NCBI GenBank assembly: GCA_902766655.1
Contig: CACXEL010000043.1
Location: 1-7,267 of the forward strand
DNA: 7,267 nt
Source: an uncultured Lachnospiraceae bacterium
GTDB taxonomy: Bacteria > Bacillota > Clostridia > Lachnospirales > Lachnospiraceae
Direction of reading: 5' to 3'
Below the pieces are notes generated by a model. It worked only from the letters and a program-made list of their open reading frames with translations. It was not told the origin of the DNA and searched no databases. This document shows, one piece after another, positions 1 to 5,842 of the stretch. Both the position numbers and the translations under genes were made by a program. Position 1 is the first letter of the stretch. The number at the start of each line of letters is the position of its first letter.

Positions 1-1572
1 GTCAAAGATCAGGAGGGCAGGGTCCTTGAGCAGGACCCGCGCGATGGATATCCGCTGCTTCTCCCCGCCCGAGAGCTTGAGGCCGCGGTTGCCCACCATG
101 GTGTCGAGGCCCTTGTCCTGACTTTCCACAAAATCGTAGATATTAGCCTTTTTGCAGGCCTCGATCATCTCCTCCTCCGTGGCATCCGGGCGCGCGTAGA
201 GGAGGTTCTCGCGGATGGTCCCGTTGAAAAGGTAGGTCTCCTGGCTGACGATGCCCACCTGCTGCCTGAGCCAGGTGAGGGAGAGCTTCCGCACGTCCAC
301 ATGCTCAAATGTGACCGAGCCGCCGCCCACGTCGTAGAGGCGTGGGATCAGGTTGATCAGCGTGCTCTTGCCGGACCCCGAGGGACCGACGATGGCGATG
401 CTGCGCCCGGCGGCAAGCTCAAAGCTCACGTCCTTCAGGATCTGCCGCTCGCCGTCGTAGGAGAAGTCCACATGGTCGAAGGTCACGCAGCCCGTAGACT
501 CGCCGGGCACCACCGGATCCACCGGCTCCTCGATCTCCACCGGCATGTCGAAATACTCGAAAATTCTGGTGAACATGGCCATGGACCGGATCCACTCCAC
601 CTGGAAGTTGAGGAGCTGGTTCACAGGCATGTACATTTTCCCCAGGAGGGCCACCAGGACCGTGATATCGCCGACGGTCAGGTCAGCCCCGTAGCTGATC
701 ATAAGCACGCCGCCGACCAGGTAGAGGAGCATGGGCCCGATGCTGGACACCGTGGAAATGACGACAAAGAACCAGCGCCCCGCCATGCTCTCCTTGATAT
801 TGAGTTCGATCATGCGCCTGTTGGCCTTTTCATAACGGCCGTACTCATAGGCCTCCTTGCCGAAGAGCTTGACCAGGAGCTGACCGCTCACCGAGAGGGT
901 CTCGTTCAGGATCCCGTTGATCTCGTCGGAACAGGCCTGGGCCTCCCGGGTCAGGGTCCAGCGGGTCTTGCCGGCCTTCCGGGTCGGGATCGTGAAGAGG
1001 GGTATGATGATCACGCCGATGGTGGCCAGGATCCAGTTGCGGCGGTACATGGCCACCACGGCCACGACCAGGGTGATCACATTGGAAAGAATGCTGGTCA
1101 TGGTGTTGGTGATGACGCTTCGGACCCCGTCAATGTCGCTGGTCATTCGGGTGATAATGTCGCCCTGGCTGCTGGTGGTGAAAAAGCGCTGGGACATTTT
1201 CTGGAGATGGGCGTACATGGCGTTCCGCATATCGAAGGTGATATGCTGGGCGATCCAGGTATTGAGGTAGCTTTCCAGAACGCCGATGAGCTTGGAGCCC
1301 AGCGTGACGGCCAGGGAGAGGACAATGAGGTAGACCAGACGAGGAAGGTCCCGGGCAATGAGACCTTCGTCGACGATCCGTCCGGTCAGGATGGACGGGT
1401 AGAGGGCCAGCACCGAGGAAATGAAGATGGCCGCCAGCACCAGAGCCATCTGCTTCACATAGGGTCTCAGATAAGAAAAAATGCGGATAAGCAGCGCCTT
1501 CGTCACCCTGGGCCGGTTCTTCTGCTCCTCCTCCGTCAGATAGGCGCCCATGCGCCCGCCGTGTCCTGCCAT
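1..1572 (-). CDS. ABC exporter half-transporter (fused membrane and ATPase domains), C-terminus cut by window edge
   Basis: This is a type IV ABC exporter of the MdlB/LmrA/MsbA-like group, which moves lipids, drugs or peptides across the cytoplasmic membrane as a dimer; the substrate cannot be told. There are 524 codons visible, starting at the ATG at 1572, with AGGAGG at 1581-1586 eight bases upstream. The membrane domain covers about residues 20-340. The ATPase domain then shows Walker A GPSGSGKST (residues 396-404), the Q-loop glutamine in IVSQE (444), the ABC signature LSGGE (500-504) and the start of Walker B, LLIFD (520-524). The window ends exactly at the Walker B aspartate, so the catalytic glutamate, D-loop and H-loop lie outside; roughly 60-80 residues are missing by family length. 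It lies 27 bp after pyrC on the same strand and is probably co-transcribed with it. Exporters of this kind often work as heterodimers, so a partner gene could lie to the left. Confidence 0.95.
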   Translation of the reverse strand, partial: MAGHGGRMGAYLTEEEQKNRPRVTKALLIRIFSYLRPYVKQMALVLAAIFISSVLALYPSILTGRIVDEGLIARDLPRLVYLIVLSLAVTLGSKLIGVLESYLNTWIAQHITFDMRNAMYAHLQKMSQRFFTTSSQGDIITRMTSDIDGVRSVITNTMTSILSNVITLVVAVVAMYRRNWILATIGVIIIPLFTIPTRKAGKTRWTLTREAQACSDEINGILNETLSVSGQLLVKLFGKEAYEYGRYEKANRRMIELNIKESMAGRWFFVVISTVSSIGPMLLYLVGGVLMISYGADLTVGDITVLVALLGKMYMPVNQLLNFQVEWIRSMAMFTRIFEYFDMPVEIEEPVDPVVPGESTGCVTFDHVDFSYDGERQILKDVSFELAAGRSIAIVGPSGSGKSTLINLIPRLYDVGGGSVTFEHVDVRKLSLTWLRQQVGIVSQETYLFNGTIRENLLYARPDATEEEMIEACKKANIYDFVESQDKGLDTMVGNRGLKLSGGEKQRISIARVLLKDPALLIFD

Positions 1573-1599
1573 AAGGCTCACCTCCTGAAACTTCCGGCT

Positions 1600-2865
1600 T
1601 TAAGCCTCATACACTACATTTCCGCCACAGACAGTCCAGCGCACGCGCCCCATGAGCCTGCGGCCCGTGAATGGTGTGTTCTCCGCCTTCGAGGCATACT
1701 TTCCCGCCACAAAGGTCTCCTCGGGACTAAAAATGACAACATCCGCCGGTCCCCCCTCCGCCAGATATCCGGCGTCCAGGTGGTAGAGCTTCGCGGGATT
1801 GGCAGTCATGAGCCGCAGCAGATCCATGAGGGCCAGATGACCGGGAGCGACCAGTTCAGTGACACCCAGGGGCAGGGAGGTCTCGAGACCGATGATTCCG
1901 CTGGGGGCAGCCGTGATGCCCCGGGACTTTTCCTCCTTCGTATGTGGCGCGTGGTCCGTGGCGATGATGTCGATTGTGCCGTCCCGGAGGCCCTCGATGA
2001 TGGCCAGGCGGTCGCGCTCCTCCCGGAGGGGCGGGTTCATTTTCGCGTACGTGCCGTACTCTATGGCGGCCTCCTCCGTCAGGCTGAAGTGGTGGGGCGT
2101 GGCTTCCGCGTGAATGTTGACGCCTGCCGCCCTGGCCCTGCGGACGATCGCCACGGATTCGGCGGCGCTGATATGCTGGATCTCGACGCAGGCGCCGGTC
2201 TCGGCGGCCAGTTCGGCGTCCCTCTCCACCATGCTGATCTCAGCCTGCCGGTCCGAACCCTCTATGCCGAAGAAGGCGCTGGCCTTACCCCGGTTGATGC
2301 CATTGTTTTTAATAAAGGCCGGGTCCTCCTCGTGGAAGCTGATGGGCAGGTCAAGGGCCGCTGCCTGAAGCATGGCCTGCCGGCAGAGCTCCTTGTCCAG
2401 GATGGGCACACCGTCGTCGGTGAAACCCGCCGCCCCGGCCGCGGCCAGGGTCTTCATGTCCGTCAGCACCTTTCCCTGCATGCCCACGGTCACGTTTGCA
2501 CAGGAGAGGACGTGGATTCCGGTCTTTCTTCCCTTCTCCAGAACGTAAGTAAGGGTCTCAGCGTTGTCGATCTTAGGGGATGTGTTGGCCATCATGATGA
2601 CCGTAGTGAAGCCGCCCGCCGCGGCCGCCGCCGCGCCGGTCAGGATATCCTCCTTGGCCGGAAAGCCGGGATCGCGGAAATGCACGTGGACGTCCACGAG
2701 CCCCGGCGCCGCCACGCAGCCCGCCGCGTCGATCACCCTGTCCTCCGGTCCCGCCGCAAGACCTGGCGCGATCCGCAGTATTCTCCCGCCATCCATCATG
2801 ATATCTGCCTGGCCGTCAAAGCCGCCAGCCGGGTCCATGACCCGGGCGTTCTTAATCAAAAGCAT
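1600..2865 (-). CDS. pyrC: Dihydroorotase, class I (zinc amidohydrolase), pyrimidine biosynthesis
   Basis: This cytoplasmic enzyme cyclises N-carbamoyl-L-aspartate to L-dihydroorotate, the third step of de novo pyrimidine synthesis. The 421-residue product has the usual length for class I bacterial dihydroorotases. The metal ligands are all visible: DVHVHFRDPG gives His60 and His62, TDDG gives the bridging Asp151, SFHEED gives His178, IQHIS gives His231, and IATDHAPH gives the catalytic Asp304. An aspartate in place of a carboxylated lysine as bridging ligand is typical of the Aquifex/Bacillus class. A start 54 bases further upstream would use TTG. The ATG at 2865 is preferred because it begins the conserved MLLIKNARV strand and has AGGAG at 2871-2875, five bases upstream. 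The gene is first in a unit with the ABC exporter gene. No PyrR attenuator or other pyrimidine-responsive leader structure was recognised. Confidence 0.96.
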   Translation of the reverse strand: MLLIKNARVMDPAGGFDGQADIMMDGGRILRIAPGLAAGPEDRVIDAAGCVAAPGLVDVHVHFRDPGFPAKEDILTGAAAAAAGGFTTVIMMANTSPKIDNAETLTYVLEKGRKTGIHVLSCANVTVGMQGKVLTDMKTLAAAGAAGFTDDGVPILDKELCRQAMLQAAALDLPISFHEEDPAFIKNNGINRGKASAFFGIEGSDRQAEISMVERDAELAAETGACVEIQHISAAESVAIVRRARAAGVNIHAEATPHHFSLTEEAAIEYGTYAKMNPPLREERDRLAIIEGLRDGTIDIIATDHAPHTKEEKSRGITAAPSGIIGLETSLPLGVTELVAPGHLALMDLLRLMTANPAKLYHLDAGYLAEGGPADVVIFSPEETFVAGKYASKAENTPFTGRRLMGRVRWTVCGGNVVYEA

Positions 2866-2907
2866 GCCGTCTCCTCTTCTTTGCTGAAAATATCGGTAGC
2901 TGCTATT

Positions 2908-2937
2908 ATCATATCGCAATTGCTTTCGCTGTGTCTA
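2908..2937 (-). promoter_or_regulatory. Putative sigma-A promoter for pyrC
   Basis: On the minus strand TAGACA (2932-2937) and TATGAT (2908-2913) are separated by 18 bp; each box matches the consensus at five of six positions. Transcription would start near 2901, giving a leader of about 36 nt before the pyrC ATG. That is too short for an attenuator. Confidence 0.5.
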
Positions 2938-3078
2938 CAGGGCATTTTGGAACACTGCCCGGCGCAGTCATGCAAAACGGCCGGATCAGTCAGAGCGCAG
3001 CAATTGTGGCAAGTGACGGGAATGTTTGTATTTTTCATGTCATGTCACGCCTGAAAGACCTCAGCTCCGGTGCTGTTT

Positions 3079-3128: not shown

Positions 3129-3157
3129 TTGACAAAACGGGCAACATACATTACAAT
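3129..3157 (+). promoter_or_regulatory. Strong sigma-A promoter driving the Met-Tyr minigene array
   Basis: TTGACA (3129-3134) is a perfect -35 box. TACAAT (3152-3157) is a -10 box with five of six matches. The spacer is the optimal 17 bp, and the 40 bp upstream are A/T-rich like an UP element. The start site should be near 3164. No ordinary reading frame follows, so this promoter appears dedicated to the repeat array. Confidence 0.8.
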
Positions 3158-3228
3158 AAGACCATCAAAACAAACAACCAATACCTAACAAAAGACAAAC
3201 CCCCACTTAATAAGCAAATCACCGACCC

Positions 3229-3772
3229 AGGAGGACACTCCGATGTACTAAGAAACCAACCGCCAAAAGACCTGTTTCATTCGCAGGCAACATTTCTCAC
3301 TACTGTTTTGGAGGATAAACCAATGTACTGAGTGGTTGGCAACCTGAAGATCCTGCATCAATCGGAGGACGGACCAATGTACTGAGTGGTTAGCAGCACA
3401 AAGACCTGCCACCTGGAGGACGGACCGATGTACTGATTATCCGGCAACCCATCAACCCCAGCACATCCGGAGGACGGACCGATGTACTAAGCAGTCAGCA
3501 ACTTGAAGACCCCTCACAATCCGGAGGACAGACCAATGTACTGAGTACTTAGCAACTGACGACCTGATATGACCCGGAGGACAGACCAATGTACTGAAAG
3601 GCCAGCAGCCAAAAGACCTCTTCAAAGATCCGGAGGACGGACCGATGTACTAAGAACTCCACCCCCAATTGATTGAAAGGCATTCAGAGAAAAGCCTCTA
3701 TACCGGTTAAAGGGCAAACTTCTCATCCCCCCGAAAGCCAGACAATCACCTAAGGAAAGACCGATGTACTGA
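3229..3772 (+). repeat. Tandem array of nine Shine-Dalgarno/ATG-TAC-stop minigenes
   Basis: Each unit consists of GGAGG, an 8-nt spacer (consensus ACRGACCR) and the frame ATG-TAC-TRA, which encodes Met-Tyr only. The ATGs are at 3243, 3323, 3377, 3428, 3482, 3536, 3589, 3645 and 3764, giving spacings of 80, 54, 51, 54, 54, 53, 56 and 119. The stops in order are TAA, TGA, TGA, TGA, TAA, TGA, TGA, TAA, TGA. Units 1-8 have GGAGG exactly 8 nt from ATG; unit 9 is degenerate, with AAGGA and a 7-nt gap. Units 1 and 2 have divergent spacers (ACACTCCG, ATAAACCA). The linkers vary more than the cores but share a weak box AGCARC followed by AAGACC. All nine frames use TAC, never TAT. The regular spacing and ribosome-binding geometry suggest real initiation sites. 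Expression and translation are inferred. Confidence 0.85.
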
Positions 3773-3858: not shown

Positions 3859-3915
3859 AGCGAAGACCCCGAACATTGGCAGTCTACAACTAAATAAAGT
3901 AAAGGAGGTTATACA

Positions 3916-3939
3916 GTGAAACTTCTAAATATTCATTAA
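3916..3939 (+). CDS. Seven-codon leader-like peptide MKLLNIH with very strong ribosome binding site
   Basis: The frame runs GTG AAA CTT CTA AAT ATT CAT TAA. It follows AAAGGAGG (3901-3908) with a 7-nt spacer, the best Shine-Dalgarno in the transcript. The stop codon abuts the 5' arm of a perfect 14-bp hairpin, so a ribosome terminating here would cover that arm. This arrangement resembles a leader peptide, but no downstream gene in the same transcript is evident before the terminator. It could also be the remnant start of a lost gene. Confidence 0.4.
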   Translation: MKLLNIH

Positions 3940-3985
3940 AAGGGCTATCTGATCGAGCGGGACCAAAATTCATCAGATAGCCCTT
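3940..3985 (+). repeat. Perfect 14-bp inverted repeat (RNA hairpin) after the 7-codon frame
   Basis: AAGGGCTATCTGAT (3940-3953) pairs perfectly with ATCAGATAGCCCTT (3972-3985) around an 18-nt loop. No T-tract follows, so it is not itself an intrinsic terminator. It lies 13 nt before the terminator stem. Confidence 0.75.
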
Positions 3986-3998
3986 AACCATGTTGTTC

Positions 3999-4028
3999 GG
4001 CAGGCGTGCGAAGGCCTGTCTTTTTTTT
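3999..4028 (+). terminator. Intrinsic terminator of the minigene array transcript
   Basis: GGCAGGC (3999-4005) pairs with GCCTGTC (4014-4020), including one G-U pair, around an 8-nt loop. Eight T residues follow at 4021-4028. It works on the plus strand only, because no T-tract lies on the other side. Confidence 0.85.
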
Positions 4029-4302: not shown

Positions 4303-5568
4303 ATGAGAAAAATAAAGACTCTTCTGGCCCTTGGACTGGCCGCCGTGCTCTTTGCCGGCTGTACCGCCACGGACACGCCCTTCGGCCCATTGCTGAATGA
4401 GGAGGAGGATGATGCGGCCGCCATGAGCGAGGCCGCCGAGCTGACCTTCTGGGCGGATGCCTCCGACCAGGGCACCTTCGAGACCGCTCTGAACGCCTTC
4501 AACGCCACCCAGGACCTGGTGAACGTGACCTGCACCTTCTACAAGCGGGCTGAGCTGAGTTCAGCCCTCAGGGAAGCAGCTGACAAAGGCGAGCTGCCCT
4601 CCATGTGGACCACCTCCCCCGGGCCGGACAGCCGATCCTATGTCGAGACCGGCCTTACTTACGATCTGACCCAGTTCGCCATGGAGAGGAAGTGGGATTC
4701 CGTTTTCCGCCCTTCCGCCCTGAAAATGGTCTCCATGAACGACAGTATAGCCGGCTATCCCACCAGCCTGAGCGCATTCGGCATCTATTACAACAAGAGT
4801 CTCTTCGCCGAGGCCGGCCTCAAGGTCCCCGAGACCTTCGAGGAGCTGGAAAATGTCTGCGCGGTCCTGAAGACTGCCGGAATCGTTCCCTTCGCCCTCG
4901 CGGGAAAGAGCAGCAACCAGGTATCCTACTTTCTGGAGTGCCTGATCGAGTACTTCGCGGGCAGCGCTTCCCATGACCGGATGCTGGCCTTGAAGAGCAC
5001 CTGGAACAACGACGCCGTGTCCCAGGCCGCTGCCCTCTACCAGGAGTACGCGGAGCTGGGCTTCTTCGAAACCGGCTTCAATGACAACAAGCTCAAAAAA
5101 GTCTACGAGCTGCTCCGCACCCGCAAGGCCGCCATGACCATCTTCGACCAGGGCGGCGACTATCTACTCACCGAGCATGGGGTCAATCCGGACGAGTTCG
5201 GCTGGTTCCCCTTCCCCTCCGTCGAGGGCCGGGTGGCCGCGACCGGCGACATGGTCCAGCTCTCCTCCACCCTCACGGAAAATGAAGTCAGCGCCGCCGT
5301 CACCTTCCTGGACTACTACATGAACACCCTGGTCTCTTACGACAACAGCTACTTCACAGATCCGATCAAGGGCCACAGCATCCAGGGCAACCAGCCCAAC
5401 ACGGCCGCCATCCTGGCCGCTGCCGACGAACGGGGCATCTACACCATCTTTGCCACCTCTCTCCCGGCCGACAACAGGACAATTTACAAGGATGTCATCC
5501 GGGCTCTCACGGAGGATAACATGCAGCCCAGCACGGCAGCCGCCAAGCTTGCGGAGGCTTTCCGTTAA
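4303..5568 (+). CDS. Extracellular solute-binding lipoprotein, family 1 (sugar-type ABC importer receptor)
   Basis: This is a membrane-anchored receptor that would capture a carbohydrate or similar small solute and pass it to an ABC importer. It has 421 residues, normal for family 1 binding proteins. The N-terminus MRKIK, a hydrophobic core and LFAGC give a lipoprotein signal peptide with the lipidated cysteine at residue 20; Phe at -3 is slightly unusual. An acidic linker follows (EEEDD, about 31-35), then the mature domain starting ELTFWAD. GIYYNK at residues 160-165 is the typical family 1 signature, followed by the PETFEEL helix. The frame is open upstream to a TTG at 4150, but that start would bury the signal peptide and overlap the promoter. 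The ATG at 4303 has AAAGGA at 4291-4296. No permease genes are nearby, so the receptor is an orphan here and its ligand is unknown. A remnant Nif3-like gene follows 14 bp downstream. Confidence 0.93.
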   Translation: MRKIKTLLALGLAAVLFAGCTATDTPFGPLLNEEEDDAAAMSEAAELTFWADASDQGTFETALNAFNATQDLVNVTCTFYKRAELSSALREAADKGELPSMWTTSPGPDSRSYVETGLTYDLTQFAMERKWDSVFRPSALKMVSMNDSIAGYPTSLSAFGIYYNKSLFAEAGLKVPETFEELENVCAVLKTAGIVPFALAGKSSNQVSYFLECLIEYFAGSASHDRMLALKSTWNNDAVSQAAALYQEYAELGFFETGFNDNKLKKVYELLRTRKAAMTIFDQGGDYLLTEHGVNPDEFGWFPFPSVEGRVAATGDMVQLSSTLTENEVSAAVTFLDYYMNTLVSYDNSYFTDPIKGHSIQGNQPNTAAILAAADERGIYTIFATSLPADNRTIYKDVIRALTEDNMQPSTAAAKLAEAFR

Positions 5569-5582
5569 CATGAGGAAGGAAA

Positions 5583-5785
5583 ATGAAAATCTCGGAGATT
5601 ATGGCACGAGTCGCAGACTACCATCCTGATCTTGGTCCCGGCTATGACGGATGTGATGGGATCAAATTAACCGGGAAGCACTTGGGGCCAGGTACGCAGT
5701 AGACTGGCTCTCCGATCTGACGGAGAACAAGGTGCCCATTCAATATGTCCCCATGAAGGATCTTTGGAATTACCAGCTCAGATAA
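5583..5785 (+). pseudogene. Remnant of a Nif3-like dinuclear metal-centre protein with the middle deleted
   Basis: From the ATG at 5583, behind a good GAGGAAGGA ribosome site, a 39-codon frame reads MKISEIMARVADYHPDL and then YDGCDGIKLT before stopping at 5702. This matches the start of the Nif3-like family, whose N-terminus carries a YHPDL...GCDG motif. From about 5668 a different frame reads EALGARYAVDWLSDL, then VPIQYVPMKDLW, and stops at 5785. That resembles the family's C-terminus. Intact members are about 250-280 residues, so some 200 internal residues, including the metal-binding centre, are lost, and the two ends are joined out of frame near 5668-5675. Intact relatives are hexameric proteins of uncertain biochemical function. 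The short remnant is probably still co-transcribed with the lipoprotein gene but should be inactive. The family assignment comes from recalled sequence patterns, not a search. Confidence 0.7.
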
Positions 5786-5842
5786 GAGTCCCTTCCGGAA
5801 AGATCATCAGGCGGTGCGATATCCATGGTCTTCGAAGCCTGC

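What the first reader, a model, noticed from the sequence alone, without database searches (positions are those of the whole stretch)
3229..3772. Tandem array of nine ribosome-binding-site/Met-Tyr-stop minigenes
Seen directly: GGAGG, 8 nt, ATG-TAC-TGA/TAA repeated eight times with near-identical cores at ~54-nt intervals, plus a degenerate ninth copy. No longer frame explains it. The geometry is an ideal translation initiation region each time, yet each frame has only two sense codons. I know of no described system with this architecture. A dedicated promoter and terminator flank it.
Basis: seen in the sequence. Interest (0 to 1): 0.93.

Follow-up and report, generated by a model that had tools for sequence, protein, structure and literature searches.

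The report
Ribosome-decoy RNA of tandem micro-genes
A bacterial genome carries eight near-identical ribosome-binding sites plus a weaker ninth, each followed by a two-codon reading frame, in what is likely a stand-alone RNA gene; dozens of related genomes share its tail and some carry similar arrays, and the RNA is predicted to catch ribosomes rather than to make protein.

Summary
Eight exact GGAGG-N8-ATG-TAC-TRA units (0 expected in 200 shuffles) and a ninth with a weak SD lie at 3230-3772, behind a near-consensus promoter and before a terminator. A model of that tail finds 49 matches (E<=1e-5) in 37 of 348 genomes of the family; 20 of the 37 did not supply the model. One genome of another family has it too; no Rfam family fits. 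The relatives share no neighbour gene. Most begin with a TTGACA promoter and carry one or more SD units, GGAGG(U)ACGGUCCAAUG-one or two codons-stop. Arrays with 51-57-nt gaps recur in other genomes. The second codon is not fixed, so Met-Tyr is incidental. About a quarter of the units keep SD and stop without a start codon. Some relatives add a hairpin that can block the SD of an MKGRxP ORF. Best reading: an undescribed family of micro-ORF RNAs, likely decoys that engage ribosomes; rival: a self-regulated operon of micropeptides. A CsrA sponge and tRNA-Tyr titration are disfavoured. Expression and ribosome binding are untested.

The parts
3129..3157 (+). sigma-70-type promoter TTGACA-N17-TACAAT
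   Evidence: 45 of 50 loci of the family (window included) have TTGACA-N16..18-TANNNT upstream.
3158..3229 (+). predicted A/C-rich 5' leader (AAGACCATCAAAACAAACAACC...)
   Evidence: many relatives show a like leader (ACCATCAAAAGAA) by reading.
3230..3251 (+). unit 1: GGAGG-N8-ATG TAC TAA
3310..3331 (+). unit 2: GGAGG-N8-ATG TAC TGA
3364..3385 (+). unit 3: GGAGG-N8-ATG TAC TGA
3415..3436 (+). unit 4: GGAGG-N8-ATG TAC TGA
3469..3490 (+). unit 5: GGAGG-N8-ATG TAC TAA
3523..3544 (+). unit 6: GGAGG-N8-ATG TAC TGA
3576..3597 (+). unit 7: GGAGG-N8-ATG TAC TGA
3632..3653 (+). unit 8: GGAGG-N8-ATG TAC TAA
3752..3772 (+). unit 9, degenerate SD (AAGGAAA): ATG TAC TGA
3901..3908 (+). SD of the tail ORF (AAAGGAGG)
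3916..3939 (+). tail micro-ORF MKLLNIH-stop (GTG start), conserved in the family
   Evidence: model R2 match 3892-3996, E 6.9e-14 (the window is one of the 19 training sequences)
3940..3985 (+). 14-bp perfect hairpin directly after the tail ORF
   Evidence: I1. Hairpin counts over 19 sequences:
3999..4028 (+). intrinsic-terminator-like hairpin with T8 tail, likely transcript end

Best explanation
The array is the likely amplified front part of a predicted stand-alone RNA gene whose tail (SD, 7-codon ORF, hairpin) matches 36 of 347 other genomes of the same family at E<=1e-5, and the RNA likely works as a ribosome decoy: each unit is predicted to load a ribosome at a strong start site and send it straight to a stop codon. 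Shown by sequence: the units, the shared tail, the recurrent promoter, the lack of a shared neighbour gene, the recurrence of tandem arrays with gaps mostly of 49-57 nt (near one ribosome per unit, by my own estimate of the footprint), the free choice of second codon, and units that keep the SD with no start codon. Inferred: that the RNA is made, that 30S subunits or initiating ribosomes bind it, and that this holds or slows ribosomes in trans, with the number of units setting capacity. The tail ORF and hairpin would close and protect the RNA. In some relatives, though not in this window, a mid hairpin can also block the SD of an MKGRxP ORF, which would make that ribosome site switchable.
For: Family: (49 matches at E<=1e-5 in 37 of 348 genomes, counted by hand; 17 of the 37 supplied training sequences, so 20 are new). 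No Rfam match at gathering score in the window and none over the RNA in 16 relatives. Promoter: 45 of 50 loci against 50 of 390 tiles of the same loci, a background that still includes the true promoters. No shared neighbour: at most 3 of 76 flanking proteins share a Pfam family (76 of the 81 nearest ORFs of 100 aa or more were given). Spacing: 27 of 53 gaps are 47-57 nt and none is under 42 nt (search floor 20 nt). Start-stop geometry: 57 of 66 start-codon units outside the window stop after 2 or 3 codons, start included, against 8.4% of any ATG in the fetched loci. Start-less units: after dropping 7 of 31 rows by eye, 24 units have AAG, ATC, AAA, ACA, CCA or CCG in place of the start, and 21 of the 24 keep a stop as fourth codon. 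Other arrays: L210 (7 units plus an SD before the tail ORF), L215 and L216. Weak sign of separate growth: spacers of the window (first one left out) and of L210 are each about 62% alike within, 47% across. Unit pairing with the 16S tail averages -14.4 kcal/mol against -11.4 for 76 gene starts.
Against: No RNA or ribosome data. The unit search required CC before the start, which itself pairs with the 16S tail, so the comparison is biased. The window's own units pair no better than many shuffles (ranks 0.28 to 0.72). The window's SDs are not unusually open in a naked fold (unpaired 0.16 to 0.52) and the whole transcript folds no better than its shuffles (z +0.82). Six of 55 stretches show no unit by the pattern. 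The tail peptide (47 of 51 begin M-[KR]-[LI], hand count) and MKGRxP look selected as peptides, which a pure decoy does not need; this was not tested formally. The only other genome of the genus held, G209, has no R2 match and no unit within 1.5 kb upstream of its pyrC. Why stops persist after lost starts is unexplained.
Confidence: 0.4

Rival explanations
1. A self-regulated operon of micropeptides. The products are the MKLxxIH and MKGRxP peptides; the minigenes are leader elements that protect the RNA or tune loading of the downstream SDs, with a ribosome- or signal-dependent switch at the second SD.
For: Tail ORF conserved as peptide with synonymous change (Leu-3 as CTT, CTG, CTA, CTC, TTA and TTG in L086). 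MKGR[DGSA]P-like ORFs in 16 of 51 transcripts. In 14 relatives the 5' hairpin arm pairs better with its own second SD than with others' (-6.3 vs -5.4 kcal/mol, permutation 0.003) and with its own 3' arm (-3.7 vs -2.7, 0.002). Published two-codon minigenes act in cis on a downstream gene (PMC8708949, abstract and introduction read).
Against: The window has the longest array but no MKGRxP ORF and no AATCTC/ATCTCT/ATCTCC arm. The peptides are mostly 6 to 8 residues. Start-less units and arrays of up to nine units are not needed to tune one 7-codon ORF. The 14 sequences are related and their arms were picked by eye.
Confidence: 0.3
2. A target-mimic sponge for a base-pairing small RNA (or a protein) that recognises GGAGGUACGGUCC.
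For: The core GG(U)ACGGUCC is kept where the start codon is not. GGUCC is commoner in the units than GAUCC, which would pair better with the 16S tail.
Against: In 24 genomes the exact 12-mer GAGGTACGGTCC occurs 19 times, in 12 of them; 18 lie in or at loci of this family, by place or by reading, and the other (L214) reads as coding sequence, so no antisense partner appeared. A partner with imperfect pairing is not excluded.
Confidence: 0.12
3. Minigenes that deplete a tRNA by peptidyl-tRNA drop-off, here tRNA-Tyr, as recalled for phage lambda bar minigenes.
For: Eight of eight full units in the window read ATG-TAC-stop.
Against: Second codons in relatives are AAA, GGA, GCA, AGA, GCT, TAC, GGC, GAC and others; start-less units should make no peptidyl-tRNA.
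Confidence: 0.06
4. A CsrA-sequestering RNA like CsrB, using the repeated GGA motifs.
For: Many GGA motifs per transcript (by reading).
Against: CsrA (PF02599) is over the cut-off in 181 of 348 genomes but in only 5 of the 37 with the RNA tail (Fisher p 3.9e-7; relatedness of genomes not corrected for). None was found in the window's own genome, which is 76% complete.
Confidence: 0.02
5. A DNA-level repeat (CRISPR-like, iteron-like) or a chance repeat without RNA function.
For: A period of about 54 bp is close to five helical turns; tandem repeats are found by TRF.
Against: Relatives with one or two units keep promoter, SD, start-stop frame and tail in the same order; spacers inside the window array are alike, unlike CRISPR spacers.
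Confidence: 0.03

Closest known systems
Two-codon leader minigenes (axe-txe mg2; those cited for EHEC LEE1/LEE4 and B. subtilis ycbK) - PMC8708949, abstract and introduction read
   Same: A strong SD directly followed by a two-codon (or six-codon, LEE4) ORF; ribosome occupancy can protect the RNA or tune translation.
   Different: Those are single or paired minigenes in cis before a protein gene. Here up to nine stand in series in a predicted stand-alone RNA with no conserved protein gene.
Phage lambda bar minigenes (recalled)
   Same: Start, one sense codon, stop, behind an SD.
   Different: They act through one tRNA; here the second codon is free.
CsrB/RsmZ sponge RNAs (recalled)
   Same: A small RNA with many copies of a GGA-containing binding motif that titrates a translation factor.
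   Different: CsrA is rare in carriers (5 of 37); units are start-stop frames with fixed SD spacing.
Extended SD-aSD start sites of Staphylococcus aureus - PMC13009471, abstract, section 9 part 1 and section 10 read
   Same: Start-proximal bases beyond the canonical SD pair with 16S bases upstream of CCUCC, and strong extended SDs accompany non-canonical starts (AUU, AUA).
   Different: Those precede real proteins; here they precede two- or three-codon frames, and the window's own units lack the extension.
Translational attenuators of erm/cat type (recalled; also described in PMC8708949 introduction)
   Same: Mid module of some relatives: an SD that can be blocked by an upstream arm with an alternative hairpin.
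   Different: No conserved gene follows, and the window lacks the module.
Rfam CC2171 (Caulobacter sRNA, RF01867)
   Same: Sub-threshold match to 3892-3984, resting on AAAGGAGGU plus a terminator hairpin (22.1 bits, gathering 75).
   Different: Far below the curated score; read as convergence on an SD.

Membership tests
Described RNA family (Rfam 15) | Score at or above a family's gathering threshold | tested here: not met
   Window: 0 matches. 16 relatives: FMN, tRNA and a group II intron, all outside the RNA, reach the cut-off; Clostridiales-1 (L092, L097) and MIR7504 (L097, other strand) stay below.
Leader minigene | SD followed by a two-codon ORF | tested here: met
   8 units
Leader minigene | Acts on a protein gene downstream in the same transcript | tested here: not met
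   Terminator-like site at 3999-4028; no shared flanking family among 76 proteins. Conservation was tested, not a cis effect.
bar-type tRNA-titrating minigene | One fixed second codon | tested here: not met
   11 different second codons among 57 short start-codon units of relatives
CsrB-type CsrA sponge | CsrA present in carriers | tested here: not met
   5 of 37 carriers against 176 of 311 others
sRNA sponge / target mimic | A complementary small RNA in the genome | tested here: inconclusive
   No antisense site for one exact 12-mer in 24 genomes; imperfect partners not tested
erm/cat-type attenuator | SD sequestered by an alternative structure | tested here: inconclusive
   Supported in 14 relatives; absent from the window
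erm/cat-type attenuator | Conserved regulated gene downstream | tested here: not met
CRISPR array | Near-identical repeats with unrelated spacers | tested here: not met
   Spacers in the window are about 62% alike, first one left out
CRISPR array | cas genes in the genome | not tested
   Not searched
Ribosome decoy (as a function) | Binds ribosomes or 30S in trans and changes translation | not testable with these tools
   Needs toeprinting, ribosome profiling and deletion

The most novel reading that the evidence does not exclude
A new kind of global regulator: a trans-acting ribosome-sponge RNA whose serial SD sites, some with an immediate stop and some with no start codon at all, park or trap 30S subunits one per about 52 nt, with capacity set by unit number (up to nine) and, in some relatives, gated by a hairpin that covers one of the sites.
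Probability: 0.3. Interest if true: 0.94.

Novelty: categorically new. Interest (0 to 1): 0.86.

Why it matters
The genes look like messages but seem built to start translation and not to continue it. If they hold ribosomes, they would be an RNA means of setting the free ribosome pool in a bacterial family that is probably Lachnospiraceae (inferred), beside protein hibernation factors. If they are micropeptide operons instead, they are among the smallest conserved coding units known to me. Either way, clustered unit spacing, free codon choice and start-less SD units make the role of the SD alone directly testable.

Tried and rejected
CsrA sponge: rejected by co-occurrence. tRNA-Tyr titration: second codon varies. 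Antisense partner: none for one 12-mer in 24 genomes. Phage origin: 24 viral stretches from one pattern, none with the tail model. Conserved neighbour: none (five of 81 ORFs left out). Named-genome pattern scan: 11 stretches; L041 and L047 belong (L047 looks to be the same contig as L017, from equal length and tail); L039 reads as coding and, like L038, L040 and L042, has no tail match; L043-L046 and L048 were not examined. Tail model beyond the family: order set, 216 genomes (some of the same family), only the window and G484 at E<=1e-5 (G484 has two units and MKLTEYH); phylum set, 219 genomes, only the window. Of the weaker hits I read L187, L188, L189, L191, L192, L193, L195 and L196: by eye mostly gene ends plus a hairpin; L192 is a possible distant relative. 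Of 27 regions fetched gave clear RNA loci, L080, L081 and L099 are unclear, and the other 8 were taken by eye as chance hits in genes; the match list that they came from was capped. First model R1 had a poor automatic structure and was replaced by R2. The 16S tail pattern was not found in 8 draft genomes, 7 relatives and the window's own, so the tail was taken from G232, G341 and G282. Extended pairing with it is not claimed for the window. Papers: nine searches (listings only, apart from the two papers named) showed no such system; most subscription papers and preprints are not held.

Full report
What is there. Positions 3230-3772 hold eight exact GGAGG-N8-ATG-TAC-TRA units (none in 200 shuffles) and a ninth ATG-TAC-TGA with a weak SD. 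The genome has no further such site (76% complete). A promoter at 3129-3157 and a terminator-like site at 3999-4028 bracket it.

How relatives were found. Nineteen tails were aligned. In their hairpin 81% of cells are paired and 24 cells have two-sided changes, above all 500 shuffles and all slid versions, and so is the covariation score. Two other measures (pairs with a two-sided change, 65 of 500; further pair types, 334 of 500) are not beyond shuffles, and the sequences are related. The model R2 built from them gave 49 matches at E<=1e-5 in 37 of 348 family genomes (counted by hand from the listing). Seventeen of these genomes supplied training sequences, so 20 are new. Ten of the 37 have two or three copies. 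At E<=0.01 the tally is 60 of 348, but weaker hits look like chance. Outside the family one genome (G484) is convincing: two units plus MKLTEYH. The 219-genome phylum set gave none beyond the window at that level. No Rfam family covers the RNA. The family is probably Lachnospiraceae, inferred from the named records L041 and L047.

Anatomy across 51 transcripts (50 of 57 sources searched; L009, L038, L039, L040, L042, L081 and L099 gave no match). TTGACA-N16..18-TANNNT stands upstream in 45 of 50 loci with enough sequence. Units per locus range from 0 (6 of 55 stretches) to 8 (which adds L186, L210, L215 and L216 and counts some false units such as MKGRxP ORFs). Gaps between units cluster at 47-57 nt (27 of 53; 21 of 46 without the window) and none is under 42 nt. 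Arrays recur: L210 has seven units at 52-57 nt plus an SD before its tail ORF; L215 has six (gaps 67, 53, 116, 53, 52), L216 three at 51 and 53 nt plus one far off. Window and L210 arrays may have grown separately, as their spacers are about 62% alike within (first window spacer left out) and 47% across; this is weak evidence.

What is constant in a unit. Outside the window, 66 units have ATG, TTG or GTG and 57 of them stop after two or three codons, start included (41 and 16), against 4.8% and 3.6% for any ATG in the fetched loci. Second codons vary (11 kinds among the 57), so neither Tyr nor any other residue is fixed. Of 31 rows without a start codon I dropped 7 by eye (parts of MKGRxP ORFs or chance). 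In the other 24 the start is replaced by AAG, ATC, AAA, ACA, CCA or CCG, and 21 keep a stop as fourth codon. The SD and the following ACGGUCC are thus kept when the start is not. S. aureus uses start-proximal extended SD pairing and, with it, the non-canonical starts AUU and AUA (PMC13009471, sections 9 part 1 and 10 read), which makes AUC plausible as a start but not AAG or CCA.

Pairing with 16S. The family's 16S tail is GGCTGGATCACCTCCTTTCT (read from G232, G341 and G282, since the pattern was not found in 8 drafts that included the window's own genome). The common unit GGAGGUACGGUCCA pairs with it at -17.4 kcal/mol; 36 distinct units average -14.4 against -11.4 for 76 gene starts. This is biased, because the unit search required CC, and the window's own units (mostly GACC) show little or no gain over shuffles. 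I therefore keep extended pairing as a property of relatives only.

The switch in relatives. MKGRxP-like ORFs occur in 16 of 51 transcripts. In 14 relatives, 13 of them with such an ORF and L093 with another second ORF, an upstream arm (AAUCUCU, varying to CCACUC or AAUCUCC) can pair either with its neighbour or with the SD of that second ORF. Own pairs beat permuted pairs in both cases (0.003 and 0.002), and minimum-energy folds mostly show the blocked SD, by eye. Arms were chosen by eye and the sequences are related. The window lacks this module.

What it is not. CsrA occurs in 181 of 348 genomes but in only 5 of 37 carriers, so a CsrA sponge is unlikely. One exact 12-mer of the unit found no antisense partner in 24 genomes. 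Neighbours share nothing clear (at most 3 of 76 proteins per Pfam family). No viral stretch among 24 carried the tail. The one other genome of the genus, G209, has no R2 match and no unit within 1.5 kb upstream of its pyrC.

Mechanism. I commit to a ribosome-engaging decoy (0.4). Many strong start sites in series, about a ribosome apart, with next to nothing to translate, copy number free to grow, codons free to change, start codons dispensable, no conserved gene to regulate in cis: these fit capture of ribosomes better than making any product. Against it stand the conserved tail peptide and MKGRxP, the switch, the six stretches without a detected unit, and the ordinary accessibility of the window's SDs. 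A micropeptide operon with leader minigenes is the main rival (0.3). All steps after the DNA sequence are inferred.

Novelty. Two-codon minigenes and sponge RNAs are known separately (PMC8708949, abstract and introduction; others recalled). A family of stand-alone RNAs made of serial micro-ORFs was not in Rfam nor in the paper searches that I made, which miss subscription papers and preprints.

Noticed in passing
L088, L091, L095, L096, L127, L133, L134, L139-L141, L145, L147, L151, L152, L210, L215, L216: SD units with no canonical start codon but a stop kept as fourth codon (21 of 24). Why the stop persists is unexplained.
   Followed up: partly
L088, L092, L093, L096, L097, L102, L118, L123, L132, L133, L140, L141, L148, L150: Alternative pairing of a conserved arm with its local partner or with the SD of the second ORF (an MKGRxP-type ORF except in L093).
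   Followed up: partly
L086, L088, L091, L095, L096 and like loci, just before the tail ORF: GTG-TAG or GTG-TAT-TAA directly upstream of ATG-AAA-TTA or ATG-AAA-TTG, a possible start-stop in the tail ORF's leader.
   Followed up: no
L146, L150, L151, L009, L085, L210: Variant tail ORFs (MILKEPF in two loci, MEIAEHH, MDIEEPIH, MIEPVH, MESICY) in the same place before the terminator.
   Followed up: partly
L083 928-1022 and 1422-1517: Two copies of the RNA gene in tandem; G222 has two about 2.6 kb apart.
   Followed up: no
L216 (G343:C58), between the units and the terminator: A separate series of repeated GTAGAATG-type elements inside the same presumed transcript.
   Followed up: no
window 301-3054 +: A 917-codon open frame antisense to pyrC and the ABC transporter gene; it looks like a GC-rich shadow frame, not a gene.
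   Followed up: no
window 4303-5568 + and about 5581-5790: A solute-binding protein gene (SBP_bac_1) with no permease gene seen in the window, followed by short open remnants that may be a broken gene (by reading).
   Followed up: no
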